Program-made: the position numbers and the translations under genes
The notes under the pieces: generated by a model
Seen by the model: only the letters and a program-made list of their open reading frames with translations
What the model was told of the DNA's origin: nothing
The model's database searches: none
Assembly (NCBI GenBank): GCA_963855995.1
Contig: OY979725.1
Span: forward strand, 6,954,118 to 7,018,117
DNA length: 64,000 bases
Reading direction: 5' to 3'
From: Muricea muricata
Lineage: Eukaryota > Cnidaria > Anthozoa > Malacalcyonacea > Plexauridae
Shown here: positions 1-60,263 of the stretch, piece by piece
How positions within the stretch are numbered: position 1 is the stretch's first letter
Layout: each line of letters begins with the position of its first letter

Positions 1-6
1 CGCCCT

Positions 7-2123
7 AACTATCGAAATGAGCGGAACAACGTGTTGAAATGGGAAACCTAAAACTTTCTGTGCAAGTGAAAAAAATGAGCTTAGAATCATCAAAATTGCG
101 TTTTCAGCGTTCTCGAGGCGATTTGAGCGCAAAAAAACTGCCTAAATCGATAACGGCCACGTTTTAGAGCTTAAAATGATGTTTCGAAGGTTAAACACAA
201 AACCTAAACGACAGCTACTAAATCAAAATTTCTGATCTTACCATGTCGGATATCATGTTTGCGGCGCTCTAACTATCGAAATGAGCGGAACAACGTGTTG
301 AAATGGGAAACCTAAAACTTTCTGTGCAAGTGAAAAAAATGAGCTTAGAATCATCAAAATCGCGTTTTGAGCGTTCTCGAAGCGATTTGAGCGACAAAAA
401 ACTGTCTAAATCGATAACGGAAACGTTTTAGAGCTTAAAATGATTTTTTTAAGGTTAAACACAAGACCTAAAGGACAGCTACTAAATAGAAATTTCTGAT
501 TTAAACCATGTCGGACATCATGTTTGCGGCGCTCTAACTATAGAAAAGAGCGGAACAACGTGTTGAAATGAGAAACCTAAAACTTTCTTTTCAAGTGAAA
601 ACAAATGAGCTTAGAATCATCAAAATTGCGTTTTAAGCGTTCTCGAAGCGACTTGAGCGCAAAAAAACTGTCTAAATCGACAACGGCAACGTTTTAGAGC
701 TTAAAATGATGTTTTGAGAGCTATACTTAAGACCTAAAGGGCAGCTACTAAACCGAAATTTCTGATCTTACAATGTCGAATATCATGTTTGCGGCGCTAT
801 AACTATGGAAATCAGCGGAACAACGTGTTGAAATGGGAAACCTAAAACTTTCTTTGCAAGTGAAAAAAATGAGCTTGGAATCATCAGAATCGCGTTTTAA
901 GCGTTCTCGAAGCGATTTTAGCGCAAAAAAAGCCGTCTAAATCGATAACGGCAACGTTTTAGAGGTTAAAATGATGTTTTGAGAGCTATACTTAAGACCT
1001 AAAGGGCAGCTACTAAACCGAAATTTCTGATCTTACAATGTCGGATATCATGTTTGCGGCGCTATAACTATGGAAATCAGCGGAACAACGTGTTGAAATG
1101 GGAAACCTAAAACTTTCTTTGCAAGTGAAAAAAATGAGCTTGGAATCATCAGAATCGCGTTTTAAGCGTTCTCGAAGCGATTTTAGCGCAAAAAAAGCCG
1201 TCTAAATCGATAACGGCAACGTTTTAAAGGTTAAAATGACGTTTTGAGAGCTAGACTTAAGACCTAAAGGGCAGCTACTAAACTGAAATTTCTGATCTTA
1301 TAATGTCGGATATCATGTTTGTGGCGCTATAACTATCGATATGAGCGGAACAACGTGTTGAAATGGGAAACCTAAAACTTTCTGTGCAAGTGAAAAAAAT
1401 GAGCTTAGAATCATCAAAATTGCGTTTTCAGCGTTCTCGAAGCGATTTGAGCGCAAAAAAACTGTCTAAATCGATAACGGCAACGTTTTGGAGCTTAAAA
1501 TGATGTTTTGAGGGCTAAAATTAAACCTAAAGGGCTGCTACTAAACCGAAATTTCTGATCTTACAATGTCGGATATCATGTTTGTGGCGCTATAACTATC
1601 GAAATGAGCGGAACAACGTGTTTAAATGAGAAACCTAAAACTTTCTTTGAGAGTGAAAAAAAATGAGCTTAGAATCATCAAAATTGCGTTTTAAGCGTTC
1701 TCGAAGCGACTTGAGCGCAAAAAAGCTGTCTAAATCGACAACGGCAACGTTTTAGAGCTCAAAATTATTTTTTGAAGGTTAAACACAAGACCTAAAGGAT
1801 AGCTACTAAATCGAAATTTCTGATCTTGCCATGTCGGATCTCATGTTTTCGGCGCTCTAACTATCGAAATGAGCGGAACAACGTGTTGAAATGAGAAACC
1901 TAAAACTTTCTTTGCAAGTGAAAACAAATGAGTTTAGAATCATCAAAATCGCGTTTTAAGCGTTGTCGAAGCGATTTGAGCGCAAAAAAGCTGCCTAAAT
2001 CGATAACGGCAACGTTTCAGAGCTTAAAATGATGTTTTGAGAGCTAAACTTATGACCTAAAGGGCAGCTACTAAACCGAAATTTCTGATCTTACCATGTC
2101 GGATATCATGTTTGCGGCGCCCT
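7..2123 (+). repeat. 8-mer higher-order repeat unit (A-B2-G-H-H-I-E-F)
   Basis: Eight successive monomers begin at 7, 271, 536, 801, 1066, 1331, 1594 and 1859, and the next A class begins at 2124, giving a 2,117-bp unit. A is recognised by entry through GCGCCCTAACT, GGCCACG and GTTTCGAAGG. B2 has GAGCGACAAAAAACTG and GATTTTTTTAAGG. G has CTTTTCAAGTGAAAAC. H has ACTATGGAAATCAGCGG and GGAATCATCAG. I has ACTATCGATATGAG and GTTTTGGAGC. E has GTGTTTAAATGAG and TCGACAACGG. F has GCGTTGTCGAAG and AACGTTTCAGAGC. The third monomer (536-800) is a hybrid: it starts G-like, then carries the E-like GACTTGAGCGC and TCGACAACGG. The same class order with small changes recurs elsewhere, for example around 13206-21240. 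Confidence 0.85.
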
Positions 2124-3686
2124 AACTATCGAAATGAGCGGAACAACGTGTTGAAATGGGAAACCTAAAACTTTCTGTGCAAGTGAAAAAAATGAGCTTA
2201 GAATCATCAAAATTGCGTTTTCAGCGTTCTCGAAGCGATTTGAGCGCAAAAAACTGCCTAAATCGATAACGGCCACGTTTTAGAGCTTAAAATGATGTTT
2301 CGAAGGTTAAACACAAGACCTAAAGGACAGCTACTAAATCAAAATTTCTGATCTTACCATGTCGGATATTATGTTTGCGGCGCTCTAACTATCGAAATGA
2401 GCGGAACAACGTGTTGAAATGGGAAACCTAAAACTTTCTGTGCAAGTGAAAAAAATGAGCTTAGAATCATCAAAATCGCGTTTTGAGCGTTCTCGAAGCG
2501 ATTTGAGCGCAAAAAAACTGTCTAAATCGATAACGGCAACGTTTTAGAGCTTAAAATGATGTTTTGAGAGCTAAACTTAAGACCTAAAGGGCAGCTACTA
2601 AACCGAAATTTCTGATCTTACAATGCCGGATATCATGTTTGCGGCGCTATAACTATGGAAATGAGCAGAACAACGTGTTGAAATGGGAAACCTAAAACTT
2701 TCTTTGCAAGTGAAAAACATGAGCTTGGAATCATCAGAATCGCGTTTTAAGCGTTCTCGAAGCGATTTTAGCGCAAAAAAAAGCCGTCTAAATCGATAAC
2801 GGCAACATTTTAGAGCTTAAAATGATGTTTTGAGAGCTAAATTTAAGACCTAAAGGGCAGCTACTAAACCGAAATTTCTGATCTTACCATGTCGGATATC
2901 ATGTTTGCGGCGCTCTAACTATCGAAATGAGCGGAACAACGTGTTGAAATGAGAAACCTAGAACTTTCGTTGCAAGTGAAAAAAATGAGCTTAGAATCAT
3001 CAAAATTGCGTTTTCAGCGTTCTCGAAGCGATTTGAGCGCAAAAAAACTGTCTAAATCGATAACGGCAACGTTTTGGAGCTTAAAATGATGTTTTGAGGG
3101 CTAAAATTAAACCTAAAGGGCTGCTACTAAACCGAAATTTCTGATCTTACAATGTCGGATATCATGTTTGTGGCGCTATAACTATCGAAATGAGCGGAAC
3201 AACGTGTTTAAATGAGAAACCTAAAACTGTCTTTGAGAGTGAAAAAAAAGGAGCTTAGAATCATCAAAATTGCGTTTTAAGCGTTCTCGAAGCGACTTGA
3301 CCGCAAAAAAGCTGTCTAAATCGACAACGGCAACGTTTTAGAGCTCAAAATTATTTTTTGAAGGTTAAACACAAGACCTAAAGGAAAGCTACTAAATCGA
3401 AATTTCTGATCTTGCCATGTCGGATCTCATGTTTTCGGCGCTCTAACTATCGAAATGAGCGGAACAACGTGTTGAAATGAGAAACCTAAAACTTTCTTTG
3501 CAAGTGAAAACAAATGAGTTTAGCGTTGTCGAAGCGATTTGAGCGAAAAAAAGCTGCCTAAATCGATAACGGCAACGTTTCAGAGCTTAAAATGATGTTT
3601 TGAGAGCTAAACTTATGACCTAAAGGGCAGCTACTAAACCGAATATTCTGATCTTACCATGTCGGATATCATGTTTGCGGCGCCCT
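2124..3686 (+). repeat. 6-mer higher-order repeat unit (A-B1-C-D-E-F)
   Basis: Monomers run A 2124-2386, B1 2387-2650, C 2651-2916, D 2917-3179, E 3180-3444 and F 3445-3686. B1 ends in CAATGCCGGATATC. C starts ACTATGGAAATGAGCAG and has GGCAACATTTTAG. D has GAGAAACCTAGAAC and GTTTTGGAGC. E here has AACTGTCTTTGAGAG and GACTTGACCGC. This F copy lacks 23 bp, so the unit is 1,563 bp rather than about 1,586 bp. The same six-class order recurs around 21411, 23789, 30374 and inside the 6,845-bp duplication, so it is a genuine unit and not a chance order. Confidence 0.85.
3445..3686 (+). repeat. F-class monomer with 23-bp deletion (copy 1)
   Basis: The F monomer is 242 bp instead of 265 bp. GAGTTTAG is followed directly by CGTTGTCGAAG, losing the segment that normally carries AATCATCAAAATCGCG. 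The same deletion recurs at 25110-25351, 31695-31936 and 38540-38781, so it is a lineage marker copied by duplication and not a sequencing error. Confidence 0.9.
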
Positions 3687-8448: not shown

Positions 8449-11400
8449 AACTATCGAAATCAGCGGAACAACGTGTTGAAATGGGAAACCTAAAACTTTC
8501 TGTGCAAGTGAAAAAAATGAGCTTAGAATCATCAAAATTGCGTTTTCAGCGTTCTCGAAGCGATTTGAGCGCAAAAAACTGCCTAAATCGATAACGGCCA
8601 CGTTTTAGAGCTTAAAATGATGTTTCGAAGGTAAAACACAAGACCTAAAGGACAGCTACTAAATCAAAATTTCTGATCTTACCATGTCGGATATCATGTT
8701 TGCGGCGTTCTAACTATCGAAATGAGCGGAACAACGTGTTGAAATGGGAAACCTAAAACTTTCTGTGCAAGTGAAAACAAATGAGCTTAGAATCATCAAA
8801 ATCGCGTTTTGAGCGTTCTCGAAGCCGTTTGAGCGCAAAAAAACTGTCTAAATCGATAACGGCAACGTTTTAGAGCTTAAAATGATGTTTTGAGAGCTAT
8901 ACTTAAGACCTAAAGGGCAGCTACTAAACGGAAATTTCTGATCTTACAATGTCGGATATCATGTTTGCGGCGCTATAACTATGGAAATCAGCGGAACAAC
9001 GTGTTGAAATGGGAAACCTAAAACTTTCTTTGCAAGTGAAAAAAATGAGCTTGGAATCATCAGAATCGCGTTTTAAGCGTTCTCGAAGCGATTTTAGCGC
9101 AAAAAAAGCCGTCTAAATCGATAACGGCAACGTTTTAGAGGTTAAAATGATGTTTTGAGAGCTAGACTTAAGACCTAAAGGGCAGCTACTAAACTGAAAT
9201 TTCTGATCTTATAATGTCGAATATCATGTTTGTGGCGCTATAACTATCGAAATGAGCGGAACAACGTGTTGAAATGAGAAACCTAAAACTTTCTGTGCAA
9301 GTGAAAAAAATGAGCTTAGAATCATCAAAATCGCGTTTCCAGTGTTCTGGAAGCGATTTGAGCGCAAAAAAACGGTCTAAATCGATAACGGCAACGTTTT
9401 GGAGCTTAAAATGATGTTTTGAGGGCTAAAATTAAACCTAAAGGGCAGCTACTAAACCGAAATTTCTGATCTTACAATGTCGGATATCATGTTTGTGGCG
9501 CTATAACTATCGAAATGAGCGGAACAACGTGTTTAAATGAGAAACCTAAAACTTTCTTTGAGAGTGAAAAAAAATGAGCTTAGAATCATCAAAATTGCGT
9601 TTTAAGCGTTCTCGAAGCGACTTGAGCGCAAAAAAGCTGTCTAAATCGACAACGGCAACGTTTTAGAGCTCAAAATTATTTTTTGAAGGTTAAACACAAG
9701 ACCTAAAGGATAGCTACTATATCGAAATTTCTGATCTTGCCATGTCGGATCTCATGTTTTCGGCGCTCTAACTATCGAAATGAGCGGAACAACGTGTTGA
9801 AATGAGAAACCTAAAACTTTCTTTGCAAGTGAAAACAAATGAGTTTAGAATCATCAAAATCGCGTTTTAAGCGTTGTCGAAGCGATTTGAGCGCAAAAAA
9901 GCTGCCTAAATCGATAACGGCAACGTTTCAGAGCTTAAAATGATGTTTTGAGAGCTAAACTTATGACCTAAAGGGCAGCTACTAAACCGAAATTTCTGAT
10001 CTTACCATGTCGGATATCATGTTTGCGGCGCCCTAACTATCGAAATGAGCGGAACAACGTGTTGAAATTTGAAACCTAAAACTTTCTGTGCAAGTGAAAA
10101 AAATGAGCTTAGAATCATCAAAATTGCGTTTTCAGCGTTCTCGAAGCGATTTGAGCGCAAAAAACTGCCTAAATCGATAACGGCCACGTTTTAGAGCTTA
10201 AAATGATGTTTCGAAGGTAAAACACAAGACCTAAAGGACAGCTACTAAATCAAAATTTCTGATCTTACCATGTCGGATATCATGTTTGCGGCGTTCTAAC
10301 TATCGAAATGAGCGGAACAACGTGTTGAAATGGGAAACCTAAAACTTTCTGTGCAAGTGAAAACAAATGAGCTTAGAATCATCAAAATCGCGTTTTGAGC
10401 GTTCTCGAAGCCGTTTGAGCGCAAAAAAACTGTCTAAATCGATAACGGCAACGTTTTAGAGCTTAAAATGATGTTTTGAGAGCTATACTTAAGACCTAAA
10501 GGGCAGCTACTAAACGGAAATTTCTGATCTTACAATGTCGGATATCATGTTTGCGGCGCTATAACTATGGAAATCAGCGGAACAACGTGTTGAAATGGGA
10601 AACCTAAAACTTTCTTTGCAAGTGAAAAAAATGAGCTTGGAATCATCAGAATCGCGTTTTAAGCGTTCTCGAAGCGATTTTAGCGCAAAAAAAGCCGTCT
10701 AAATCGATAACGGCAACGTTTTAGAGGTTAAAATGATGTTTTGAGAGCTAGACTTAAGACCTAAAGGGCAGCTACTAAACTGAAATTTCTGATCTTATAA
10801 TGTCGAATATCATGTTTGTGGCGCTATAACTATCGAAATGAGCGGAACAACGTGTTGAAATGAGAAACCTAAAACTTTCTGTGCAAGTGAAAAAAATGAG
10901 CTTAGAATCATCAAAATCGCGTTTCCAGTGTTCTGGAAGCGATTTGAGCGCAAAAAAACGGTCTAAATCGATAACGGCAACGTTTTGGAGCTTAAAATGA
11001 TGTTTTGAGGGCTAAAATTAAACCTAAAGGGCAGCTACTAAACCGAAATTTCTGATCTTACAATGTCGGATATCATGTTTGTAGCGCTATAACTATCGAA
11101 ATGAGCGGAACAACGTGTTTAAATGAGAAACCTAAAACTTTCTTTGAGAGTGAAAAAAAATGAGCTTAGAATCATCAAAATTGCGTTTTAAGCGTTCTCG
11201 AAGCGACTTGAGCGCAAAAAAGCTGTCTAAATCGACAACGGCAACGTTTTAGAGCTCAAAATTATTTTTTGAAGGTTAAACACAAGACCTAAAGGATAGC
11301 TACTAAATCGAAATTTCTGATCTTGCCATGTCGGATCTCATGTTTTCGGCGCTCTAACTATCGAAATGAGCGGAACAACGTGTTGAAATGAGAAACCTAA

Positions 11401-11620
11401 AACTTTCTTTGCAAGTGAAAACAAATGAGTTTAGAATCATCAAAATCGCGTTTTAAGCGTTGTCGAAGCGATTTGAGCGCAAAAAAGCTGCCTAAATCGA
11501 TAACGGCAACGTTTCAGAGCTTAAAATGATGTTTTGAGAGCTAAACTTATGACCTAAAGGGCAGCTACTAAACCGAAATTTCTGATCTTACCATGTCGGA
11601 TATCATGTTTGCGGCGCCCT
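8449..11620 (+). repeat. Tandem pair of 1,586-bp six-monomer units
   Basis: Unit one spans 8449-10034 and unit two 10035-11620; similarity continues into a partial third to about 11940. The rare junction GCGTTCTAACT occurs at 8706, 10293 and 11879, spacing 1,587 and 1,586 bp. Other shared markers are GAAGGTAAAACAC in the A monomer, GAAGCCGTTTGAG, AAACGGAAATTTC, and the palindromic TTCCAGTGTTCTGGAA box at 9337 and 10923. The class order is A, a B/G hybrid, H, J, E, F. This is a recent local duplication of one HOR unit. Confidence 0.85.
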
Positions 11621-13205
11621 AACTATCGAAATGAGCGGAACAACGTGTTGAAATGGGAAACCTAAAACTTTCTGTGCAAGTGAAAAAAATGAGCTTAGAA
11701 TCATCAAAATTGCGTTTTCAGCGTTCTCGAAGCGATTTGAGCGCAAAAAACTGCCTAAATCGATAACGGCCACGTTTTAGAGCTTAAAATGATGTTTCGA
11801 AGGTAAAACACAAGACCTAAAGGACAGCTACTAAATCAAAATTTCTGATCTTACCATGTCGGATATCATGTTTGCGGCGTTCTAACTATCGAAATGAGCG
11901 GAACAACGTGTTGAAATGGGAAACCTAAAACTTTCTGTGCAAGTGAAAAAAATGAGCTTAGAATCATCAAAATCGCGTTTTGAGCGTTCTCGAAGCGATT
12001 TGAGCGCAAAAAAACTGTCTAAATCGATAACGGCAACGTTTTAGAGCTTAAAATGATGTTTTGAGAGCTAAACTTAAGACCTAAAGGGCAGCTACTAAAC
12101 CGAAATTTCTGATCTTACAATGCCGGATATCATGTTTGCGGCGCTATAACTATGGAAATGAGCAGAACAACGTGTTGAAATGGGAAACCTAAAACTTTCT
12201 TTGCAAGTGAAAAAAATGAGCTTGGAATCATCAGAATCGCGTTTTAAGCGTTCTCGAAGCGATTTTAGCGCAAAAAAAAGCCGTCTAAATCGATAACGGC
12301 AACATTTTAGAGCTTAAAATGATGTTTTGAGAGCTAAATTTAAGACCTAAAGGGCAGCTACTAAACCGAAATTTCTGATCTTACCATGTCGGATATCATG
12401 TTTTCGGCGCTCTAACTATCGAAATGAGCGGAAACACGTGTTGAAATGAGAAACCTAGAACTTTCTTTGCAAGTGAAAAAAATGAGCTTAGAATCATCAA
12501 AATTGCGTTTTCAGCGTTCTCGAAGCGATTTGAGCGCAAAAAAACTGTCTAAATCGATAACGGCAACGTTTTGGAGCTTAAAATGATGTTTTGAGGGCTA
12601 AAATTAAACCTAAAGGGCAGCTACTAAACCGAAATTTCTGATCTTGCAATGTCGGATATCATGTTTGTGGCGCTATAACTATCGAAATGAGCGGAACAAC
12701 GTGTTTAAATGAGAAACCTAAAACTGTCTTTGAGAGTGAAAAAAAAGGAGCTTAGAATCATCAAAATTGCGTTTTAAGCGTTCTCGAAGCGATTTGACCG
12801 CAAAAAGCTGTCTAAATCGACAACGGCAACGTTTTAGAGCTCAAAATTATTTTTTGAAGGTTAAACACAAGACCTAAAGGATAGCTACTAAATCGAAATT
12901 TCTGATCTTGCCATGTCGGATCTCATGTTTTCGGCGCTTTAACTATCGAAATGAGCGGAACATTGTGTTGAAATGAGAAACCTAAAACTTTCTTTGCAAG
13001 TGAAAACAAGTGAGTTTAGAATCATCAAAATCGCGTTTTAAGCGTTGTCGAAGCGATTTGAGCGAAAAAAAGCTGCCTAAATCGATAACGGCAACGTTTC
13101 AGAGCTTAAAATGATGTTTTGAGAGCTAAACTTATGACCTAAAGGGCAGCTACTAAACCGAAATTTCTGATCTTACAATGTCGGATATCATGTTTGCGGC
13201 GCTAT

Positions 13206-33600: not shown

Positions 33601-36600
33601 TCATCAAAATTGCGTTTTCAGCGTTCTCGAAGCGATTTGAGCGCAAAAAACTGCCTAAATCGATAACGGCCACGTTTTAGAGCTTAAAATGATGTTTCGA
33701 AGGTTAAACACAAGACCTAAAGGACAGCTACTAAATCAAAATTTCTGATCTTACCATGTCGGATATCATGTTTGCGGCGCCCTAACTATCGAAATGAGCG
33801 GAACAACGTGTTGAAATGGGAAACCTAAAACTTTCTGTGCAAGTGAAAAAAATGAGCTTAGAATCATCAAAATCGCGTTTTGAGCGTTCTCGAAGCGATT
33901 TGAGCGCAAAAAAACTGTCTAAATCGATAACGGCAACGTTTTAGAGCTTAAAATGATGTTTTGAGAGCTAAACTTAAGACCTAAAGGGCAGCTACTAAAC
34001 CGAAATTTCTGATCTTACAATGCCGGATATCATGTTTGCGGCGCTATAACTATGGAAATGAGCAGAACAACGTGTTGAAATGGGAAACCTAAAACTTTCT
34101 TTGCAAGTGAAAAAAATGAGCTTGGAATCATCAGAATCGCGTTTTAAGCGTTCTCGAAGCGATTTTAGCGCAAAAAAAAGCCGTTAAATTGATAACGGCA
34201 ACATTTTAGAGCTTAAAATGATGTTTTGAGAGCTAAATTTAAGACCTAAAGGGCAGCTACTAAACCGAAATTTCTGATCTTACCATGTCGGATATCATGT
34301 TTGCGGCGCTCTAACTATCGAAATAAGCGGAACAACGTGTTGAAATGAGAAACCTAGAACTTTCTTTGCAAGTAAAAAAAATGAGCTTAGAATCATCAAA
34401 ATTGCGTTTTCAGCGTTCTCGAAGCGATTTGAGCGCAAAAAAACTGTCTAAATCGATAACGGCAACGTTTTGGAGCTTAAAATGATGTTTTGAGGGCTAA
34501 AATTAAACCTAAAAGGCAGCTACTAAACCGAAATTTCTGATCTTACAATGTCGGATATCATGTTTGTGGCGCTATAACTATCGAAATGAGCGGAACAACG
34601 TGTTTAAATGAGAAACCTAAAACTGTCTTTGAGAGTGAAAAAAAAGGAGCTTAGAATCATCAAAATTGCGTTTTAAGCGTTCTCGAAGCGACTTGACCGC
34701 AAAAAAGCTGTCTAAATCGACAACGGCAACGTTTTAGAGCTCAAAATTATTTTTTGAAGGTTAAACACAAGACCTAAAGGATAGCTACTAAATCGAAATT
34801 TCTGATCTTGCCATGTCGGATCTCATGTTTTTGGCGCTCTAACTACCGAAATGAGCGGAACAACGTGTTGAAATGAGAAACCTAAAACTTTCTGTGCAAG
34901 TGAAAAAAATGAGCTTAGAATCATCAAAATCGCGTTTCCAGTGTTCTGGAAGCGATTTGAGCGCAAAAAAACGGTCTAAATCGATAACGGCAACGTTTTG
35001 GAGCTTAAAATGATGTTTTGAGGGCTAAAATTAAACCTAAAGGGCAGCTACTAAACCGAAATTTCTGATCTTACAATGTCGGATATCATGTTTGTGGCGC
35101 TATAACTATCGAAATGAGCGGAACAACGTGTTTAAATGAGAAACCTAAAACTTTCTTTGAGAGTGAAAAAAAATGAGCTTAGAATCATCAAAATTGCGTT
35201 TTAAGCGTTCTCGAAGCGACTTGAGCGCAAAAAAGCTGTCTAAATCGACAACGGCAACGTTTTAGAGCTCAAAATTATTTTTTGAAGGTTAAACACAAGA
35301 CCTAAAGGATAGCTACTAAATCGAAATTTCTGATCTTGCCATGTCGGATCTCATGTTTTCGGCGCTCTAACTATTGAAATGAGCGGAACAACGTGTTGAA
35401 ATGAGAAACCTAAAACTTTCTTTGCAAGTGAAAACAAATGAGTTTAGAATCATCAAAATCGCGTTTTAAGCGTTGTCGAAGCGATTTGAGCGCAAAAAAG
35501 CTGCCTAAATCGATAACGGCAACGTTTCAGAGCTTAAAATGATGTTTTGAGAGCTAAACTTATGACCTAAAGGGCAGCTACTAAACCGAAATTTCTGATC
35601 TTACCATGTCGGATATCATGTTTGCGGCGCCCTAACTATCGAAATGAGCGGAACAACGTGTTGAAATGGGAAACCTAAAACTTTCTGTGCAAGTGAAAAA
35701 AATGAGCTTAGAATCATCAAAATTGCGTTTTCAGCGTTCTCGAAGCGATTTGAGCGCAAAAAACTGCCTAAATCGATAACGGCCACGTTTTAGAGCTTAA
35801 AATGATGTTTCGAAGGTTAAACACAAGACCTAAAGGACAGCTACTAAATCAAAATTTCTGATCTTACCATGTCGGATATCATGTTTGCGGCGCCCTAACT
35901 ATCGAAATGAGCGGAACAACGTGTTGAAATGGGAAACCTAAAACTTTCTGTGCAAGTGAAAAAAATGAGCTTAGAATCATCAAAATCGCGTTTTGAGCGT
36001 TCTCGAAGCGATTTGAGCGCAAAAAAACTGTCTAAATCGATAACGGCAACGTTTTAGAGCTTAAAATGATGTTTTGAGAGCTAAACTTAAGACCTAAAGG
36101 GCAGCTACTAAACCGAAATTTCTGATCTTACAATGCCGGATATCATGTTTGCGGCGCTATAACTATGGAAATGAGCAGAACAACGTGTTGAAATGGGAAA
36201 CCTAAAACTTTCTTTGCAAGTGAAAAAAATGAGCTTGGAATCATCAGAATCGCGTTTTAAGCGTTCTCGAAGCGATTTTAGCCAAAAAAAAGCCGTTAAA
36301 TTGATAACGGCAACATTTTAGAGCTTAAAATGATGTTTTGAGAGCTAAATTTAAGACCTAAAGGGCAGCTACTAAACCGAAATTTCTGATCTTACCATGT
36401 CGGATATCATGTTTGCGGCGCTCTAACTATCGAAATGAGCGGAACAACGTGTTGAAATGAGAAACCTAGAACTTTCTTTGCAAGTGAAAAAAATGAGCTT
36501 AGAATCATCAAAATTGCGTTTTCAGCGTTCTCGAAGCGATTTGAGCGCAAAAAAACTGTCGAAATCGATAACGGCCACGTTTTGGAGCTTAAAATGATGT

Positions 36601-37481
36601 TTTGAGGGCTAAAATTAAACCTAAAAGGCAGCTACTAAACCGAAATTTCTGATCTTACAATGTCGGATATCATGTTTGTGGCGCTATAACTATCGAAATG
36701 AGCGGAACAACGTGTTTAAATGAGAAACCTAAAACTGTCTTTGAGAGTGAAAAAAAAGGAGCTTAGAATCATCAAAATTGCGTTTTAAGCGTTCTCGAAG
36801 CGACTTGACCGCAAAAAAGCTGTCTAAATCGACAACGGCAACGTTTTAGAGCTCAAAATTATTTTTTGAAGGTTAAACACAAGACCTAAAGGATAGCTAC
36901 TAAATCGAAATTTCTGATCTTGCCATGTCGGATCTCATGTTTTCGGCGCTCTAACTACCGAAATGAGCGGAACAACGTGTTGAAATGAGAAACCTAAAAC
37001 TTTCTTTGCAAGTGAAAACAAATGAGTTTAGAATCATCAAAATCGCGTTTTAAGCGTTGTCGAAGCGATTTGAGCGCAAAAAAGCTGCCTAAATCGATAA
37101 CGGCCACGTTTTAGAGCTTAAAATGATGTTTTGAGAGCTAAACTTATGACCTAAAGGGCAGCTACTAAACCGAATATTCTGATCTTACCATGTCGGATAT
37201 CATGTTTGCGGCGCCCTAACTATCGAAATGAGCGGAACAACGTGTTGAAATGGGAAACCTAAAACTTTCTGTGCAAGTGAAAAAAATGAGCTTAGAATCA
37301 TCAAAATTGCGTTTTCAGCGTTCTCGAAGCGATTTGAGCGCAAAAAAACTGCCTAAATCGATAACGGCCACGTTTTAGAGCTTAAAATGATGTTTCGAAG
37401 GTTAAACACAAGACCTAAACGACAGCTACTAAATCAAAATTTCTGATCTTACCATGTCGGATATCATGTTTGCGGCACTCT
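30637..37481 (+). repeat. 6,845-bp segmental tandem duplication, copy 1
   Basis: The unit starts at the monomer beginning 30637 and ends where copy 2 begins at 37482. Private variants are all repeated at exactly +6,845 bp: CTCGAAACGATTTG (30741), GAGCAGAAC before an F monomer (31711), the 23-bp deletion (31766), AAAACTCTAAATCG (32331), CCGTTAAATTGATAACGG (34181), GAAATAAGCGG (34321), TGTTTTTGGCGC (34831), TTAGCCAAAAAAAAGCC (36281), ACTACCGAAATG (near 36955) and GCGGCACTC (37476). Inside the unit an eight-monomer block is itself repeated at 2,113 bp: palindromic boxes at 32823 and 34936, paired A monomers at 33521/33784 and 35634/35897. Confidence 0.92.
31695..31936 (+). repeat. F-class monomer with 23-bp deletion (copy 3)
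   Basis: This 242-bp monomer has its deletion junction at 31766 and also carries GAGCAGAAC, seen otherwise in F context only in its duplicate at 38540. Confidence 0.9.
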
Positions 37482-40400
37482 AACTATCGAAATGAGCGGA
37501 ACAACGTGTTGAAATGGGAAACCTAAAACTTTCTGTGCAAGTGAAAAAAATGAGCTTAGAATCATCAAAATCGCGTTTTGAGCGTTCTCGAAACGATTTG
37601 AGCGCAAAAAAACTGTCTAAATCGATAACGGCAACGTTTTAGAGCTTAAAATGATGTTTTGAGAGCTAAACTTAAGACCTAAAGGGCAGCTACTAAACCG
37701 AAATTTCTGATCTTACAATGCCGGATATCATGTTTGCGGCGCTATAACTATGGAAATGAGCAGAACAACGTGTTGAAATGGGAAACCTAAAACTTTCTTT
37801 GCAAGTGAAAAAAATGAGCTTGGAATCATCAGAATCGCGTTTTAAGCGTTCTCGAAGCGATTTTAGCGCAAAAAAAAGCCGTCTAAATCGATAACGGCAA
37901 CATTTTAGAGCTTAAAATGATGTTTTGAGAGCTAAATTTAAGACCTAAAGGGCAGCTACTAAACCGAAATTTCTGATCTTACCATGTCGGATATCATGTT
38001 TGCGGCGCTCTAACTATCGAAATGAGCGGAACAACGTGTTGAAATGAGAAACCTAGAACTTTCTTTGCAAGTGAAAAAAATGAGCTTAGAATCATCAAAA
38101 TTGCGTTTTCAGCGTTCTCGAAGCGATTTGAGCGCAAAAAAACTGTCTAAATCGATAACGGCAACGTTTTGGAGCTTAAAATGATGTTTTGAGGGCTAAA
38201 ATTAAACCTAAAGGGCAGCTACTAAACCGAAATTTCTGATCTTACAATGTCGGATATCATGTTTGTGGCGCTATAACTATCGAAATGAGCGGAACAACGT
38301 GTTTAAATGAGAAACCTAAAACTGTCTTTGAGAGTGAAAAAAAAGGAGCTTAGAATCATCAAAATTGCGTTTTAAGCGTTTTCGAAGCGACTTGACCGCA
38401 AAAAAGCTGTCTAAATCGACAACGGCAACGTTTTAGAGCTCAAAATTATTTTTTGAAGGTTAAACACAAGACCTAAAGGATAGCTACTAAATCGAAATTT
38501 CTGATCTTGCCATGTCGGATCTCATGTTTTCGGCGCTCTAACTATCGAAATGAGCAGAACAACGTGTTGAAATGAGAAACCTAAAACTTTCTTTGCAAGT
38601 GAAAACAAATGAGTTTAGCGTTGTCGAAGCGATTTGAGCGAAAAAAAGCTGCCTAAATCGATAACGGCAACGTTTCAGAGCTTAAAATGATGTTTTGAGA
38701 GCTAAACTTATGACCTAAAGGGCAGCTACTAAACCGAATATTCTGATCTTACCATGTCGGATATCATGTTTGCGGCGCCCTAACTATCGAAATGAGCGGA
38801 ACAACGTGTTGAAATGGGAAACCTAAAACTTTCTGTGCAAGTGAAAAAAATGAGCTTAGAATCATCAAAATTGCGTTTTCAGCGTTCTCGAAGCGATTTG
38901 AGCGCAAAAAAACTGCCTAAATCGATAACGGCCACGTTTTAGAGCTTAAAATGATGTTTCGAAGGTTAAACACAAGACCTAAACGACAGCTACTAAATCA
39001 AAATTTCTGATCTTACCATGTCGGATATCATGTTTGCGGCGCTCTAACTATCGAAATGAGCGGAACAACGTGTTGAAATGGGAAACCTAAAACTTTCTGT
39101 GCAAGTGAAAAAAATGAGCTTAGAATCATCAAAATCGCGTTTTGAGCGTTCTCGAAGCCATTTGAGCGCAAAAAAACTCTAAATCGATAACGGCAACGTT
39201 TTAAAGCTTAAAATGATGTTTTGAGAGCTATACATAAGACCTAAAGGGCAGCTACTAAACCGAAATTTCTGATCTTACAATGTCGGGTATCATGTTTGCG
39301 GCGCTATAACTATGGAAATCAGCGGAACAACGTGTTGAAATGGGAAACCTAAAACTTTCTTTGCAAGTGAAAAAAATGAGCTTGGAATCATCAGAATCGC
39401 GTTTTAAGCGTTCTCGAAGCGATTTTAGCGCAAAAAAAGCCGTCTAAATCCATAACGGCAACGTTTTAGAGGTTAAAATGATGTTTTGAGAGCTAGACTT
39501 AAGACCTAAAGGGCAGCTACTAAACTGAAATTTCTGATCTTATAATGTCGAATATCATGTTTGTGGCGCTATAACTATCGAAATGAGCGGAACAACGTGT
39601 TGAAATGGGAAACCTAAAACATTCTGTGCAAGTGAAAAAAATGAGCTTAGAATCATCAAAATCGCGTTTCCAGTGTTCTGGAAGCGATTTGAGCGCAAAA
39701 AAGCTGTCTAAATCGATAACGGCAACGTTTTGGAGCTTAAAATGATGTTTTGAGGGCTAAAATTAAACCTAAAGGGCAGCTACTAAACCGAAATTTCTGA
39801 TCTTACAATGTCGGATATCATGTTTGTGGCGCTATAACTATCGAAATGAGCGGAACAACGTGTTTAAATTAGAAACCTAAAACTTTCTTTGAGAGTGAAA
39901 AAAAATGAGCTTAGAATCATCAAAATTGCGTTTTAAGCGTTCTCGAAGCGACTTGAGCGCAAAAAAGCTGTCTAAATCGACAACGGCAACGTTTTAGAGC
40001 TCAAAATTATTTTTTGAAGGTTAAACACAACACCTAAAGGATAGCTACTAAATCGAAATTTCTGATCTTGCCATGTCGGATCTCATGTTTTCGGCGCTCT
40101 AACTATTGAAATGAGCGGAACAACGTGTTGAAATGAGAAACCTAAAACTTTCTTTGCAAGTGAAAACAAATGAGTTTAGAATCATCAAAATCGCGTTTTA
40201 AGCGTTGTCGAAGCGATTTGAGCGCAAAAAAGCTGCCTAAATCGATAACGGCAACGTTTCAGAGCTTAAAATGATGTTTTGAGAGCTAAACTTATGACCT
40301 AAAGGGCAGCTACTAAACCGAAATTTCTGATCTTACCATGTCGGATATCATGTTTGCGGCGCCCTAACTATCGAAATGAGCGGAACAACGTGTTGAAATG

Positions 40401-43400
40401 GGAAACCTAAAACTTTCTGTGCAAGTGAAAAAAATGAGCTTAGAATCATCAAAATTGCGTTTTCAGCGTTCTCGAAGCGATTTGAGCGCAAAAAACTGCC
40501 TAAATCGATAACGGCCACGTTTTAGAGCTTAAAATGATGTTTCGAAGGTTAAACACAAGACCTAAAGGACAGCTACTAAATCAAAATTTCTGATCTTACC
40601 ATGTCGGATATCATGTTTGCGGCGCCCTAACTATCGAAATGAGCGGAACAACGTGTTGAAATGGGAAACCTAAAACTTTCTGTGCAAGTGAAAAAAATGA
40701 GCTTAGAATCATCAAAATCGCGTTTTGAGCGTTCTCGAAGCGATTTGAGCGCAAAAAAACTGTCTAAATCGATAACGGCAACGTTTTAGAGCTTAAAATG
40801 ATGTTTTGAGAGCTAAACTTAAGACCTAAAGGGCAGCTACTAAACCGAAATTTCTGATCTTACAATGCCGGATATCATGTTTGCGGCGCTATAACTATGG
40901 AAATGAGCAGAACAACGTGTTGAAATGGGAAACCTAAAACTTTCTTTGCAAGTGAAAAAAATGAGCTTGGAATCATCAGAATCGCGTTTTAAGCGTTCTC
41001 GAAGCGATTTTAGCGCAAAAAAAAGCCGTTAAATTGATAACGGCAACATTTTAGAGCTTAAAATGATGTTTTGAGAGCTAAATTTAAGACCTAAAGGGCA
41101 GCTACTAAACCGAAATTTCTGATCTTACCATGTCGGATATCATGTTTGCGGCGCTCTAACTATCGAAATAAGCGGAACAACGTGTTGAAATGAGAAACCT
41201 AGAACTTTCTTTGCAAGTAAAAAAAATGAGCTTAGAATCATCAAAATTGCGTTTTCAGCGTTCTCGAAGCGATTTGAGCGCAAAAAAACTGTCTAAATCG
41301 ATAACGGCAACGTTTTGGAGCTTAAAATGATGTTTTGAGGGCTAAAATTAAACCTAAAAGGCAGCTACTAAACCGAAATTTCTGATCTTACAATGTCGGA
41401 TATCATGTTTGTGGCGCTATAACTATCGAAATGAGCGGAACAACGTGTTTAAATGAGAAACCTAAAACTGTCTTTGAGAGTGAAAAAAAAGGAGCTTAGA
41501 ATCATCAAAATTGCGTTTTAAGCGTTCTCGAAGCGACTTGACCGCAAAAAAGCTGTCTAAATCGACAACGGCAACGTTTTAGAGCTCAAAATTATTTTTT
41601 GAAGGTTAAACACAAGACCTAAAGGATAGCTACTAAATCGAAATTTCTGATCTTGCCATGTCGGATCTCATGTTTTTGGCGCTCTAACTACCGAAATGAG
41701 CGGAACAACGTGTTGAAATGAGAAACCTAAAACTTTCTGTGCAAGTGAAAAAAATGAGCTTAGAATCATCAAAATCGCGTTTCCAGTGTTCTGGAAGCGA
41801 TTTGAGCGCAAAAAAACGGTCTAAATCGATAACGGCAACGTTTTGGAGCTTAAAATGATGTTTTGAGGGCTAAAATTAAACCTAAAGGGCAGCTACTAAA
41901 CCGAAATTTCTGATCTTACAATGTCGGATATCATGTTTGTGGCGCTATAACTATCGAAATGAGCGGAACAACGTGTTTAAATGAGAAACCTAAAACTTTC
42001 TTTGAGAGTGAAAAAAAATGAGCTTAGAATCATCAAAATTGCGTTTTAAGCGTTCTCGAAGCGACTTGAGCGCAAAAAAGCTGTCTAAATCGACAACGGC
42101 AACGTTTTAGAGCTCAAAATTATTTTTTGAAGGTTAAACACAAGACCTAAAGGATAGCTACTAAATCGAAATTTCTGATCTTGCCATGTCGGATCTCATG
42201 TTTTCGGCGCTCTAACTATTGAAATGAGCGGAACAACGTGTTGAAATGAGAAACCTAAAACTTTCTTTGCAAGTGAAAACAAATGAGTTTAGAATCATCA
42301 AAATCGCGTTTTAAGCGTTGTCGAAGCGATTTGAGCGCAAAAAAGCTGCCTAAATCGATAACGGCAACGTTTCAGAGCTTAAAATGATGTTTTGAGAGCT
42401 AAACTTATGACCTAAAGGGCAGCTACTAAACCGAAATTTCTGATCTTACCATGTCGGATATCATGTTTGCGGCGCCCTAACTATCGAAATGAGCGGAACA
42501 ACGTGTTGAAATGGGAAACCTAAAACTTTCTGTGCAAGTGAAAAAAATGAGCTTAGAATCATCAAAATTGCGTTTTCAGCGTTCTCGAAGCGATTTGAGC
42601 GCAAAAAACTGCCTAAATCGATAACGGCCACGTTTTAGAGCTTAAAATGATGTTTCGAAGGTTAAACACAAGACCTAAAGGACAGCTACTAAATCAAAAT
42701 TTCTGATCTTACCATGTCGGATATCATGTTTGCGGCGCCCTAACTATCGAAATGAGCGGAACAACGTGTTGAAATGGGAAACCTAAAACTTTCTGTGCAA
42801 GTGAAAAAAATGAGCTTAGAATCATCAAAATCGCGTTTTGAGCGTTCTCGAAGCGATTTGAGCGCAAAAAAACTGTCTAAATCGATAACGGCAACGTTTT
42901 AGAGCTTAAAATGATGTTTTGAGAGCTAAACTTAAGACCTAAAGGGCAGCTACTAAACCGAAATTTCTGATCTTACAATGCCGGATATCATGTTTGCGGC
43001 GCTATAACTATGGAAATGAGCAGAACAACGTGTTGAAATGGGAAACCTAAAACTTTCTTTGCAAGTGAAAAAAATGAGCTTGGAATCATCAGAATCGCGT
43101 TTTAAGCGTTCTCGAAGCGATTTTAGCCAAAAAAAAGCCGTTAAATTGATAACGGCAACATTTTAGAGCTTAAAATGATGTTTTGAGAGCTAAATTTAAG
43201 ACCTAAAGGGCAGCTACTAAACCGAAATTTCTGATCTTACCATGTCGGATATCATGTTTGCGGCGCTCTAACTATCGAAATGAGCGGAACAACGTGTTGA
43301 AATGAGAAACCTAGAACTTTCTTTGCAAGTGAAAAAAATGAGCTTAGAATCATCAAAATTGCGTTTTCAGCGTTCTCGAAGCGATTTGAGCGCAAAAAAA

Positions 43401-44326
43401 CTTTCTAAATCGATAACGGCCACGTTTTGGAGCTTAAAATGATGTTTTGAGGGCTAAAATTAAACCTAAAAGGCAGCTACTAAACCGAAATTTCTGATCT
43501 TACAATGTCGGATATCATGTTTGTGGCGCTATAACTATCGAAATGAGCGGAACAACGTGTTTAAATGAGAAACCTAAAACTGTCTTTGAGAGTGAAAAAA
43601 ATGGAGCTTAGAATCATCAAAATTGCGTTTTAAGCGTTCTCGAAGCGACTTGACCGCAAAAAAGCTGTCTAAATCGACAACGGCAACGTTTTAGAGCTCA
43701 AAATTATTTTTTGAAGGTTAAACACAAGACCTAAAGGATAGCTACTAAATCGAAATTTCTGATCTTGCCATGTCGGATCTCATGTTTTCGGCGCTCTAAC
43801 TACCGAAATGAGCGGAACAACGTGTTGAAATGAGAAACCTAAAACTTTCTTTGCAAGTGAAAACAAATGAGTTTAGAATCATCAAAATCGCGTTTTAAGC
43901 GTTGTCGAAGCGATTTGAGCGAAAAAAAGCTGCCTAAATCGATAACGGCAACGTTTCAGAGCTTAAAATGATGTTTTGAGAGCTAAACTTATGACCTAAA
44001 GGGCAGCTACTAAACCGAATATTCTGATCTTACCATGTCGGATATCATGTTTGCGGCGCCCTAACTATCGAAATGAGCGGAACAACGTGTTGAAATGGGA
44101 AACCTAAAACTTTCTGTGCAAGTGAAAAAAATGAGCTTAGAATCATCAAAATTGCGTTTTCAGCGTTCTCGAAGCGATTTGAGCGCAAAAAAACTGCCTA
44201 AATCGATAACGGCCACGTTTTAGAGCTTAAAATGATGTTTCGAAGGTTAAACACAAGACCTAAACGACAGCTACTAAATCAAAATTTCTGATCTTACCAT
44301 GTCGGATATCATGTTTGCGGCACTCT
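37482..44326 (+). repeat. 6,845-bp segmental tandem duplication, copy 2
   Basis: It follows copy 1 directly and repeats its private variants in the same order at +6,845 bp, ending at GCGGCACTC (44321). Few differences were seen. Copy 1 has ACTGTCGAAATCG near 36556 where copy 2 has ACTTTCTAAATCG near 43401. Copy 1 has GGCCACGTTTTAG in an F monomer near 37105 where copy 2 keeps GGCAACGTTTCAG. Copy 1 has GAGCTGAG near 33062 where copy 2 has GAGCTTAG. The near identity indicates a recent unequal crossover or replication-based duplication, with some later point change or gene conversion. Confidence 0.92.
38540..38781 (+). repeat. F-class monomer with 23-bp deletion (copy 4)
   Basis: The deletion junction is at 38611, exactly 6,845 bp after copy 3. 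This is the duplicate generated by the segmental tandem duplication. Confidence 0.9.
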
Positions 44327-47234
44327 AACTATCGAAATGAGCGGAACAACGTGTTGAAATGGGAAACCTAAAACTTTCTGTGCAAGTGAAAAAAATCAGC
44401 TTAGAATCATCAAAATCGCGTTTTGAGCGTTCTCGAAGCGATTTGAGCGACCAAAAACTGTCTAAATCGATAACGGAAACGTTTTAGAGCTTGAAATGAT
44501 TTTTTTAAGGTTAAACACAAGACCTAAAGGACAGCTACTAAATAGAAATTTCTGATTTAAACCATGTCGGACATCATGTTTGCGGCGCTCTAACTATCGA
44601 AATGAGCGGAACAACGTGTTGAAATGAGAAACCTTAAACTTTCTTTTCAAGTGAAAACAAATGAGCTTAGAATCATCAAAATCGCGTTTTGAGCGTTCTC
44701 GAAGCCATTTGAGCGCAAAAAAACTGTCTAAATCGATAACGGCAACGTTTTAGAGCTTAAAATGATGTTTTGAGAGCTATACTTAAGACCTAAAGGGCAG
44801 CTACTAAACCGAAATTTCTGATCTTACAATGTCGGATATCATGTTTGCGGCGCTATAACTATGGAAATCAGCGGAACAACGTGTTGAAATGGGAAACCTA
44901 ACACTTTCTGTGCAAGTGAAAAAAATGAGCTTAGAATCATCAAAATTGCGTTTTCAGCGTTCTCGAAGCGATTTGAGCGCAAAAAACTGCCTAAATCGAT
45001 AACGGCCACGTTTTAGAGCTTAAAATGATGTTTCGAAGGTTAAACACAAGACCTAAAGGACAGCTACTAAATCAAAATTTCTGATCTTACCATGTCGGAT
45101 ATCATGTTTGCGGCGCTCTAACTATCGAAATGAGCGGATGAACGTGTTGAAATGGGAAACCTAAAACTTTCTGTGCAAGTGAAAAAAATGAGCTTAGAAT
45201 CATCAAAATCGCGTTTTGAGCGTTCTCGAAGCGATTTGAGCGCAAAAAAACTGTCTAAATCGATAACGGCAACGTTTTAGAGCTTAAAATGATGTTTTGA
45301 GAGCTAAACTTAAGACCTAAAGGGCAGCTACTAAACCGAAATTTCTGATCTTACAATGCCGGATATCATGTTTGCGGCGCTATAACTATGGAAATGAGCA
45401 GAACAACGTGTTGAAATGGGAAACCTAAAACTTTCTTTGCAAGTGAAAAAAATGAGCTTGGAATCATCAGAATCGCGTTTTAAGCGTTCTCGAAGCGATT
45501 TTAGCGCAAAAAAAAGCCGTCTAAATCGATAACGGCAACATTTTAGAGCTTAAAATGATGTTTTGAGAGCTAAATTTAAGACCTAAAGGGCAGCTACTAA
45601 ACCGAAATTTCTGATCTTACCATGTCGGATATCATGTTTGCGGCGCTCTAACTATCGAAATGAGCGGAACAACGTGTTGAAATGAGAAACCTAGAACTTT
45701 CTTTGCAAGTGAAAAAAATGAGCTTAGAATCATCAAAATTGCGTTTTCAGCGTTCTCGAAGCGATTTGAGCGCAAAAAAACTGTCTAAATCGATAACGGC
45801 AACGTTTTAGAGCTTAAAATGATGTTTTGAGAGCTAAACTTAAGACCTAAAGGGCAGCTACTAAACCGAAATTTCTGATCTTACAATGCCGGATATCATG
45901 TTTGCGGCGCTATAACTATGGAAATGAGCAGAACAACGTGTTGAAATGGGAAACCTAAAACTTTCTTTGCAAGTGAAAAAAATGAGCTTGGAATCATCAG
46001 AATCGCGTTTTAAGCGTTCTCGAAGCGATTTTAGCCAAAAAAAAGCCGTTAAATTGATAACGGCAACATTTTAGAGCTTAAAATGATGTTTTGAGAGCTA
46101 AATTTAAGACCTAAAGGGCAGCTACTAAACCGAAATTTCTGATCTTACCATGTCGGATATCATGTTTGTGGCGCTCTAACTATCGAAATGAGCGGAACAA
46201 CGTGTTGAAATGAGAAACCTAGAACTTTCTTTGCAAGTGAAAAAAATGAGCTTAGAATCATCAAAATTGCGTTTTCAGCGTTCTCGAAGCGATTTGAGCG
46301 CAAAAAAACTGTCTAAATCGATAACGGCCACGTTTTGGAGCTTAAAATGATGTTTTGAGGGCTAAAATTAAACCTAAAAGGCAGCTACTAAACCGAAATT
46401 TCTGATCTTACAATGTCGGATATCATGTTTGTGGCGCTATAACTATCGAAATGAGCGGAACAACGTGTTTAAATGAGAAACCTAAAACTGTCTTTGAGAG
46501 TGAAAAAAAAGGAGCTTAGAATCATCAAAATTGCGTTTTAAGCGTTCTCGAAGCGACTTGACCGCAAAAAAGCTGTCTAAATCGACAACGGCAACGTTTT
46601 AGAGCTCAAAATTATTTTTTGAAGGTTAAACACAAGACCTAAAGGATAGCTACTAAATCGAAATTTCTGATCTTGCCATGTCGGATCTCATGTTTTCGGC
46701 GCTCTAACTACCGAAATGAGCGGAACAACGTGTTGAAATGAGAAACCTAAAACTTTCTTTGCAAGTGAAAACAAATGAGTTTAGAATCATCAAAATCGCG
46801 TTTTAAGCGTTGTCGAAGCGATTTGAGCGAAAAAAAGCTGCCTAAATCGATAACGGCAACGTTTCAGAGCTTAAAATGATGTTTTGAGAGCTAAACTTAT
46901 GACCTAAAGGGCAGCTACTAAACCGAATATTCTGATCTTACCATGTCGGATATCATGTTTGCGGCGCCCTAACTATCGAAATGAGCGGAACAACGTGTTG
47001 AAATGGGAAACCTAAAACTTTCTGTGCAAGTGAAAAAAATGAGCTTAGAATCATCAAAATTGCGTTTTCAGCGTTCTCGAAGCGATTTGAGCGCAAAAAA
47101 ACTGCCTAAATCGATAACGGCCACGTTTTAGAGCTTAAAATGATGTTTCGAAGGTTAAACACAAGACCTAAACGACAGCTACTAAATCAAAATTTCTGAT
47201 CTTACCATGTCGGATATCATGTTTGCGGCACTCT
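44327..47234 (+). repeat. 2,908-bp (11-monomer) repeat, copy 1
   Basis: The segment from the GCGGCACTC junction at 44321 to the next at 47229 is repeated in its first part downstream. Shared rare variants are AAAAAATCAGCTTAG, GCTTGAAATGATTTTTTT, and CCTAACACTTTCTG at 44901 and 47809 (2,908 bp apart). It consists of a three-monomer block (44327-45119: B2, G and an H/A hybrid) followed by B1-C-D and B1-C-D-E-F-A monomers. Confidence 0.8.
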
Positions 47235-57800: not shown

Positions 57801-57816
57801 ATGTTTGTGGCGCTAT

Positions 57817-58079
57817 AACTATCGAAATGAGCGGAACAACGTGTTGAAATGAGAAACCTAAAACTTTCTGTGCAAGTGAAAAAAATGAGCTTAGAATCAT
57901 CAAAATCGCGTTTCCAGTGTTCTGGAAGCGATTTGAGCGCAAAAAAACGGTCTAAATCGATAACGGCAACGTTTTGGAGCTTAAAATGATGTTTTGAGGG
58001 CTAAAATTAAACCTAAAGGGCAGCTACTAAACCGAAATTTCTGATCTTACAATGTCGGATATCATGTTTGTGGCGCTAT
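57817..58079 (+). repeat. J-class monomer with palindromic TTCCAG/CTGGAA box (last of ten)
   Basis: In this 263-bp monomer the usual GTTTTCAGCGTTCTCGAAG segment is replaced by one containing TTCCAG-TGTT-CTGGAA (57912-57927), a perfect 6-bp stem with a 4-base loop. The same box was found starting at 6958, 9337, 10923, 26505, 32823, 34936, 39668, 41781, 51559 and 57912, each time in a monomer leading to an E monomer. The class is minor but recurrent; whether a protein recognises the dyad is unknown. Confidence 0.85.
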
Positions 58080-58609
58080 AACTATCGAAATGAGCGGAAC
58101 AACGTGTTTAAATGAGAAACCTAAAACTTTCTTTGAGAGTGAAAAAAAATGAGCTTAGAATCATCAAAATTGCGTTTTAAGCGTTCTCGAAGCGACTTGA
58201 GCGCAAAAAAGCTGTCTAAATCGACAACGGCAACGTTTTAGAGCTCAAAATTATTTTTTGAAGGTTAAACACAAGACCTAAAGGATAGCTACTAAATCGA
58301 AATTTCTGATCTTGCCATGTCGGATCTCATGTTTTCGGCGCTCTAACTATCGAAATGAGCGGAACAACGTGTTGAAATGAGAAACCTAAAACTTTCTTTG
58401 CAAGTGAAAACAAATGAGTTTAGAATCATCAAAATCGCGTTTTAAGCGTTGTCGAAGCGATTTGAGCGCAAAAAAGCTGCCTAAATCGATAACGGCAACG
58501 TTTCAGAGCTTAAAATGATGTTTTGAGAGCTGAACTTATGACCTAAAGGGCAGCTACTAAACCGAAATTTCTGATCTTACCATGTCGGATATCATGTTTG
58601 CGGCGCCCT

Positions 58610-58679
58610 AACTATCGAAATGAGCGGAACAACGTGTTGAAATGGGAAACCTAAAACTTTCTGTGTAAGTGAAAAAAAT
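58610..58679 (+). repeat. Final truncated satellite monomer
   Basis: An A-class monomer enters through GCGCCCTAACT and matches other A copies for 70 bp, except CTGTGTAAG where most have CTGTGCAAG. It then stops inside the A-run: satellite would continue GAGCTTAG, but the sequence here turns to CAATAGTGG. There is no gradual decay before the break, so the right end of the array is sharp. Confidence 0.9.
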
Positions 58680-60245: not shown

Positions 60246-60263
60246 ATTCATGCATACGAAATG

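What the first reader, a model, noticed from the sequence alone, without database searches (positions are those of the whole stretch)
1..58679. A 58.7-kb satellite with layered higher-order repeats and no interruption
About 221 monomers of about 265 bp fall into roughly ten classes that recur in fixed order (6-mer and 8-mer units), with larger duplications on top. All point the same way and no transposon was seen in nearly 59 kb. Multi-layer HOR organisation is best known from primate alpha satellite. In an animal that looks non-vertebrate it makes this a candidate centromeric or pericentromeric array. The link to a centromere is inference.
Basis: partly seen in the sequence, partly recalled or inferred. 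Interest (0 to 1): 0.7.

Follow-up and report, generated by a model that had tools for sequence, protein, structure and literature searches.

The report
Coral centromere-like satellite, mirrored
The array in the window is the inner edge of a roughly three-megabase block of repeats in the middle of a chromosome of what looks like a soft coral; the block is built as a giant mirror image, four other chromosomes seem to show the same, and it is a strong but unproven centromere candidate.

Summary
Confirmed: window 1-58679 is an unbroken head-to-tail 264/265-bp satellite, 222 whole monomers in about ten classes, with real multi-layer higher-order repeats (199 matching runs of 3 or more monomers; at most 20 in 200 shuffles). 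The order is a mosaic, not one fixed n-mer. The array is the inner end of a block at about 5.6-8.5 Mb of a 13.9-Mb contig (C10), with insertions outside the window. Host: a 453-Mb genome with 16 chromosome-size contigs, probably an octocoral. The family has 54,824 counted monomers and was seen on all 16 contigs (C1: one hit).

Not visible from the window: the block is a mirror. In the C10 loci tested, 658 of 658 monomers left of a switch at 7.081 Mb are plus strand and 128 of 128 right of it minus strand, and the switch was read through without a gap. Sparse sampling shows plus-left/minus-right on C3, C6, C7 and C16 too; C5 does not fit; ten contigs were seen on one strand only. This resembles the 'macro-dyad symmetries' reported in 2026 for Tribolium, but megabase-sized and in a probable cnidarian. 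Centromere function is inferred, not tested.

The parts
1..58679 (+). 264/265-bp satellite array with mosaic higher-order repeats (222 whole monomers, ~10 classes); inner end of a + strand array that continues left outside the window to about C10:6676145
   Evidence: TRF; monomers, classes and shuffles; extension left
29594..44339 (+). largest higher-order layer: a 26-monomer (6.84-kb) unit present 2.15 times in tandem (monomers 112-167); the 30-monomer match has mean identity 99.65%
8462..12160 (+). 6-monomer HOR (BACEDF) 2.33 copies in tandem, monomers 32-45 (end approximate)
32741..36960 (+). 8-monomer HOR (EDFBAHED) two tandem copies, monomers 124-139 (end approximate); again at 39586 (monomers 150-165)
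58680..59450 (+). 3' part of a non-LTR retrotransposon (open frame 58669-59034, TTCAAAG-like tail) that forms the inner border of the left array; classification by eye and recall, no Pfam match
59739..60479 (.). nested terminal-inverted-repeat element (96-nt arms 93% complementary, inner hairpin 59983-60130), possible 9-bp target duplication TAAAATTAT read by eye
62394..64000 (+). start of a different 155-bp satellite, continuing to about C10:7021085 outside the window

Best explanation
The window holds the inner end of the left arm of the (peri)centromeric satellite domain of chromosome C10 of an animal that is probably an octocoral. The types descend from a ~108-bp unit: a 323-bp trimer (outer left arm of C10 and 12 of the other 15 contigs), and 264/265-bp forms that lack the same roughly 58 bp (264: outer right arm and the switch zone; 265: the HOR form nearest the centre on both arms). 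Duplication of blocks of a few to 26 monomers by unequal exchange makes the mosaic HORs (pattern shown, process inferred). The arms of C10 are mirror images about a switch at C10:~7,080,975, beside a 68-kb TE-rich stretch (shown). The same monomer classes and variants are on both arms of C10 and C16 (shown), so either the HOR block was duplicated in inverse orientation or the arms keep exchanging sequence as palindrome arms do (inferred). The domain most likely carries the centromere (inferred), with the kinetochore on the HOR arms or the TE-rich stretch (speculative).
For: C10 from left to right: 323-type 5.6-6.655 Mb (+); 265 HOR 6.676-7.0128 (+); no family 7.0128-7.0807; 264-type stub of 239 bp (+); (GAT)n; 264-type 743 bp (-); 265 HOR (-) from 7,081,754; 264-type (-) further out, hits to 8.525 Mb. 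194,000 contiguous bases C10:6894118-7088117 with 0 non-ACGT; in the C10 loci tested 658 +/0 - left and 0 +/128 - right of the switch. Right-arm locus L151: 37 of 37 monomers have a left-arm partner at 97% or more, in the left arm's class order: 7 of 31 7-mers found, 0 of 31 in reversed order. Genome count 28,035 + and 26,789 -, reversed control 0 and 0. Family seen on 16 of 16 chromosome-size contigs. 323 = 3 x 108: circular self-identity 0.489 at shift 108, maximum of 500 shuffles 0.365; 265 and 264 lack the same segments of 323.
Against: No functional evidence. No exact CENP-B box and no excess of short dyads (6-bp arms 0, shuffle mean 0.95; 5-bp arms 1, shuffle mean 4.0). Off-centre hits: C2 61.8 Mb (1), C5 4.98 Mb (1), C14 12.858-12.880 Mb at the contig end (10). 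The outer arms differ (323 left, 264 right). An age layering is not clean: the outer 323 array (L145) is more homogeneous (mean 0.954, 28 of 435 pairs at 99% or more) than the inner HOR loci L137 (0.917, 21 of 666) and L151 (0.915, 24 of 666); only the outer 264 sample (0.913, 1 of 231) and the far end of the 265 array, L144 (0.901, 2 of 666), look more decayed. Only 16 of 27 monomers next to the switch (L150) and 22 of 39 of L144 have a 97% partner in the contiguous left array. C5 does not fit the mirror; ten contigs were seen on one strand only.
Confidence: 0.67

Rival explanations
1. Ordinary heterochromatic satellite block: HORs and strand switches come from unequal crossing over plus inversions, with no link to centromere function.
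For: HORs can arise neutrally; insertions in the arrays; no CENP-B box; off-centre sites; C5 mixed; strand inversions inside human alpha-satellite arrays are known (recalled), so a switch alone proves nothing.
Against: Seen on 16 of 16 chromosome-size contigs, mainly between about 30% and 63% of their length; strands cleanly separated among the hits seen on five contigs; copies shared by both arms.
Confidence: 0.23
2. The mirror on C3, C6, C7 and C16 is a scaffolding artefact: repeat contigs joined in wrong orientation.
For: Their switch points were not read; the intervals left are about 265 kb (C3), 143 kb (C6), 117 kb (C7) and 50 kb (C16). Five contig starts read GC 0.0 (C1, C3, C5, C8, C12), presumably N, so gaps exist. 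C5 shows the opposite sense at 10.88-10.90 Mb.
Against: C10 is read through without N for 194 kb including the switch; on C16 the same rare variants are on both arms; misjoins should give diverging as often as converging cases, and five of six converge, which is suggestive only (one-sided 7/64).
Confidence: 0.12
3. The TE-rich stretch, not the satellite, is the kinetochore site, as in Drosophila centromere islands (recalled); the satellites are flanking heterochromatin.
For: On C10 a 68-kb stretch next to the switch holds TE-type frames: 7 of 10 frames searched (of 32 listed) match Pfam TE-type families (Peptidase_A17, Integrase_H2C2, DDE_3, DUF4371, RVT_3; two RVT_1 matches below the curated cut-off).
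Against: The stretch lies on one side of the switch, with + monomers beyond it; switch zones of other chromosomes were not read.
Confidence: 0.25

Closest known systems
Macro-dyad symmetries of Tribolium (peri)centromeric satellites (PMC13081366: outline, abstract, passages and first part of the Discussion seen)
   Same: Abundant satellites from a ~110-bp unit, on all chromosomes, sub-arrays in opposite orientation about defined inversion sites; the authors propose a role in centromere chromatin.
   Different: There a few to tens of kb (longest 75 kb) and many arrays; here arms of about 1.4 Mb each about one switch on C10. The authors say such symmetries were documented only in Tribolium. Different phylum; sequences not compared here.
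Primate alpha-satellite higher-order repeats (recalled; papers seen only in listings)
   Same: Monomer classes, multi-monomer HORs, larger duplications on top, chromosome-specific variants.
   Different: 171-bp monomer with CENP-B boxes in primates; here 264/265 bp, no exact CENP-B box, mosaic order, mirror arms. Inversions do occur in alpha-satellite arrays (recalled).
Drosophila centromere TE islands within satellite (recalled, nothing read)
   Same: A TE-rich stretch beside satellite blocks.
   Different: CenH3 binding not tested here; the flanking satellite is one HOR family in mirror arms.

Membership tests
Higher-order-repeat satellite | Diverged monomer classes recur in order; copies of multi-monomer units much more alike than neighbours | tested here: met
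   Adjacent monomers 0.908; 30-monomer match 0.9965; shuffles
Higher-order-repeat satellite | Chromosome-specific variants | tested here: met
   (full list): 39 of 45 hits on C10; 67 of the 100 listed of 103 on C16; the 100 listed of 1607 are all on C10; the rest were not seen. Searches also listed only 100 (of 1085 and 528)
Macro-dyad satellite symmetry | Long arrays of one satellite in opposite orientation meeting at an inversion site | tested here: met
   C10: 658 +/0 - and 0 +/128 - about a switch read without gap
Macro-dyad satellite symmetry | Recurs across the genome | tested here: inconclusive
   Plus-left/minus-right on C3, C6, C7, C10, C16; C5 does not fit; C1, C2, C4, C8, C9, C11-C15 seen on one strand only
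Functional centromere | CenH3/CENP-A nucleosomes | not testable with these tools
   No ChIP data
Functional centromere | One main block per chromosome | tested here: inconclusive
   Seen on 16 of 16 contigs, but sparse sampling, capped lists, off-centre hits on C2, C5, C14, and one hit only on C1
Alpha satellite (primate) | CENP-B box in monomers | tested here: not met
   0 exact boxes on either strand of 1-58679; best 6 of 9 core positions in the consensus, no better than 300 shuffles (motif recalled)
Octocorallia (host) | mtMutS gene in the mitochondrial genome | not tested
COX1 and COX2 lie on opposite strands of a 19,292-bp contig and COX1 has no TGA; likeness to octocoral COX1 is recalled

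The most novel reading that the evidence does not exclude
Every chromosome of this octocoral carries a single megabase-scale mirror (macro-dyad) of one satellite family, plus strand left and minus strand right, whose arms are kept alike by inter-arm exchange, and the mirror rather than the sequence marks the centromere. With Tribolium this would make mirror symmetry a recurrent, sequence-independent feature of animal centromeres.
Probability: 0.28. Interest if true: 0.88.

Novelty: new variant of a known kind. Interest (0 to 1): 0.73.

Why it matters
What makes DNA centromere-competent is open. The Tribolium authors propose that large mirror symmetry may matter more than sequence and knew of it only in one beetle genus. 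A much larger case in a probable cnidarian gives an independent lineage in which to test the idea by CenH3 mapping, and shows alpha-satellite-like HOR layering far from primates. None of the listings of my ten literature searches showed such a satellite in an octocoral, but only 75 and 78 named octocorals, and most subscription papers are not held.

Tried and rejected
Contamination or phage origin: no match of window 1-8000 in phages. A 19-mer gave 0 viral-contig hits and 13 bacterial loci with one hit each, taken as chance and not examined further; a 14-mer gave 120 or more viral stretches (capped scan), as expected of so short a word, not examined. RNA families: none at gathering score. LINE frame: none of 24 candidate stretches confirmed in viral contigs, no Pfam match even at E 10. 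CENP-B box and short dyads: not in excess. A gapped test for the 108-bp sub-repeat was uninformative (shuffles equalled the signal) and was replaced by an ungapped circular one. The first whole-genome DNA search could not be scored. TE stretch as the exact centre of symmetry: dropped, because + monomers lie on its far side. Simple 'older layers outside': not upheld for the 323 array. An ascidian host was considered from the chromosome number and dropped after reading COX1.
Full report
The observation. Window 1-58679 is one uninterrupted array of 264/265-bp monomers, all in + orientation. The 222 whole monomers fall into ten classes at a 5% cut. Neighbours are as different as random pairs (0.908 against 0.913), yet monomers 6, 8, 12, 14, 18, 20 and 26 positions apart are more alike. 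The array has 199 matching runs of three or more monomers; 200 shuffles of monomer order gave at most 20. The longest is a 30-monomer match at 99.65%.

Where it is. The window is C10:6954118-7018117 of a 453,007,491-base assembly in 74 contigs. C10 is 13,900,795 bases, so the window lies at its middle. Sixteen contigs are of chromosome size (C1 124.2 Mb, C2 71.7, C3 60.7, C4 19.2 down to C16 11.6; C17 is 36 kb). COX1 on C74 (19,292 bases) has no TGA codon and lies opposite COX2; I recall these features and the sequence as octocoral-like. The published Gorgonia ventalina assembly has 16 pseudomolecules with a similar size pattern (79.8, 39.8, 33.1, then 19.0 Mb; passages seen). mtMutS was not checked, so 'probably an octocoral' is inference.

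The domain. Probes along C10 show no family match at the contig start, 1.0, 2.0, 3.0, 4.0, 4.7 and 5.2 Mb, nor at 8.8, 9.5, 10.5, 12.0 Mb and the contig end; matches run from 5.6 to 8.4 Mb and pattern hits reach 8.525 Mb. From left to right: a 323-bp type (5.6-6.655 Mb, +); the 265-bp HOR type (first listed exact hit 6,676,145, end 7,012,796, +) with insertions at 6,852,470 and 6,889,697-6,892,910; 68 kb without the family, holding the LINE fragment, the TIR element and the 155-bp satellite seen in the window, then TE-type frames; a 239-bp + stub of 264 type, a (GAT)n tract and 743 bp of 264 type in - orientation (7,080,722-7,081,730); the 265 type in - orientation from 7,081,754, found to the 7.258-Mb probe, with no family at 7.218 and 7.308 Mb; and a 264 type in - orientation further out. 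At 7.518 Mb one probe was again 93% like the window type, and at 7.358 Mb only 198 of 1000 bases matched, so the right arm is patchy.

The mirror. The 194,000 bases C10:6894118-7088117 were read contiguously with no ambiguous base. In the C10 loci tested, the 25-base family word (up to 3 mismatches) occurs 658 times on + and never on - left of 7,080,975, and 128 times on - and never on + to the right (loci without a family match were not included). All 37 monomers of right-arm locus L151 have a left-arm partner at 97% or better, in the same class order once reverse-complemented. Of the 27 L150 monomers, nearest the switch, 16 do; the innermost are 264 type. L151 also repeats itself at 5,555 bp (21 monomers) with 99.93% identity.

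Genome-wide. The 25-base word is found 28,035 times on + and 26,789 on -, none in the reversed control; at 264-323 bp each that is about 3-4% of the assembly. Listings show only the first 100 places, so I sampled with base variants of the word (fully listed only in 49 and 120) and short probes. Both strands were seen on six contigs. Five are plus left and minus right: C3 (+ 29.64-30.12, - 30.39-30.57 Mb), C6 (+ 5.13-6.50, - 6.64-6.82), C7 (+ 7.46-7.66, - 7.78-8.75), C10, and C16 (+ 5.13-5.35, - 5.40-5.86, 35 + then 32 - listed hits without mixing, both arms carrying the same rare variants). C5 does not fit (- at 10.882, + at 10.90 and 11.75-11.79, + at 4.98). Five of six is not significant for the sense of the mirror on its own (one-sided 7/64). 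Ten contigs were seen on one strand only: C2, C4, C8, C9, C13, C14 (+, several hits), C15 (+, one probe), C1 (-, one hit), C11 (-, five probes), C12 (-, one probe). They may be one-way or half sampled. Probes without the family: C4 at 9.0, 9.5, 10.0; C8 6.5; C9 6.5, 7.5; C11 6.0, 6.5; C12 6.7, 7.4; C13 6.5, 8.0; C16 5.0, 6.0, 6.5 Mb. C11, C12 and C15 were probed only near mid-contig, so their position is no independent evidence.

History. The 323-bp monomer is a trimer of a ~108-bp unit. The 264 and 265 types lack the same segments of it, about 26 and 32 bp, so they probably share an ancestor that lost them. The 323 type is seen on 12 other contigs: by best match of probes on C11, C12, C13, C15, C16 and by hit spacing, read by eye, on C2, C3, C4, C5, C6, C7, C14; C9 has 264/266-bp spacing; C1 and C8 were not typed. 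In the outer right array of C10, 11 of 32 intervals between sampled variants are 3,032 bp and 6 are 3,160-3,161 bp (about 12 monomers), a further HOR. A simple rule of young inside and old outside is not upheld: the outer 323 array is internally the most homogeneous sample (mean 0.954), while the 264 sample and the far end of the 265 array are more decayed.

Mechanism. Duplication of blocks of a few to 26 monomers is the direct reading of the mosaic. Sharing of classes across the mirror needs either an inverted duplication after the HOR arose or continuing exchange between arms; the 264-type monomers at the switch itself hint that the inversion predates the HOR and favour exchange. Centromere function is inferred from position, size, presence on all 16 contigs and contig-specific variants.

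Comparison. The nearest report is Tribolium madens (PMC13081366; outline, abstract, passages, first part of the Discussion). It says macro-dyad symmetries of satellite arrays were documented exclusively in Tribolium and gives 75 kb as the longest. A search for the term found that paper and one that holds it only in its reference list. In Acropora, LINE-rich regions were associated with presumed centromeres (PMC11577847, passages).

Changes on re-check.

Noticed in passing
window 59739-60479: TIR element with a second hairpin (59983-60130) and telomere-like AACCCT repeats (60264-60302) nested inside it; possible 9-bp target duplication.
   Followed up: partly
window 62394-64000, on to about C10:7021085: A separate 155-bp satellite with a palindromic motif around AGAATTTCT.
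   Followed up: no
L174 and L193 (both ends of C10): A 354/355-bp tandem repeat stands at both contig ends (similar consensus by eye), so C10 may reach both subtelomeres; a CCCTAA array is at the start of C6 (L197).
   Followed up: no
L255, C1:38414782-38416095: Probable nuclear copy of mitochondrial COX1 with COX2 beside it, one in-frame stop, close to the C74 sequence.
   Followed up: no
C14:12857915-12879922: Ten family hits within 25 kb of the end of contig C14, far from its hits at 5.1-5.7 Mb: a second site or a scaffolding error.
   Followed up: no
L180, L217, L200: Short-period tandem arrays (11, 9 and 9/36 bp) at C10 5.2 Mb, C11 6.5 Mb and the start of C9; the first two lie near the satellite domains.
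   Followed up: no
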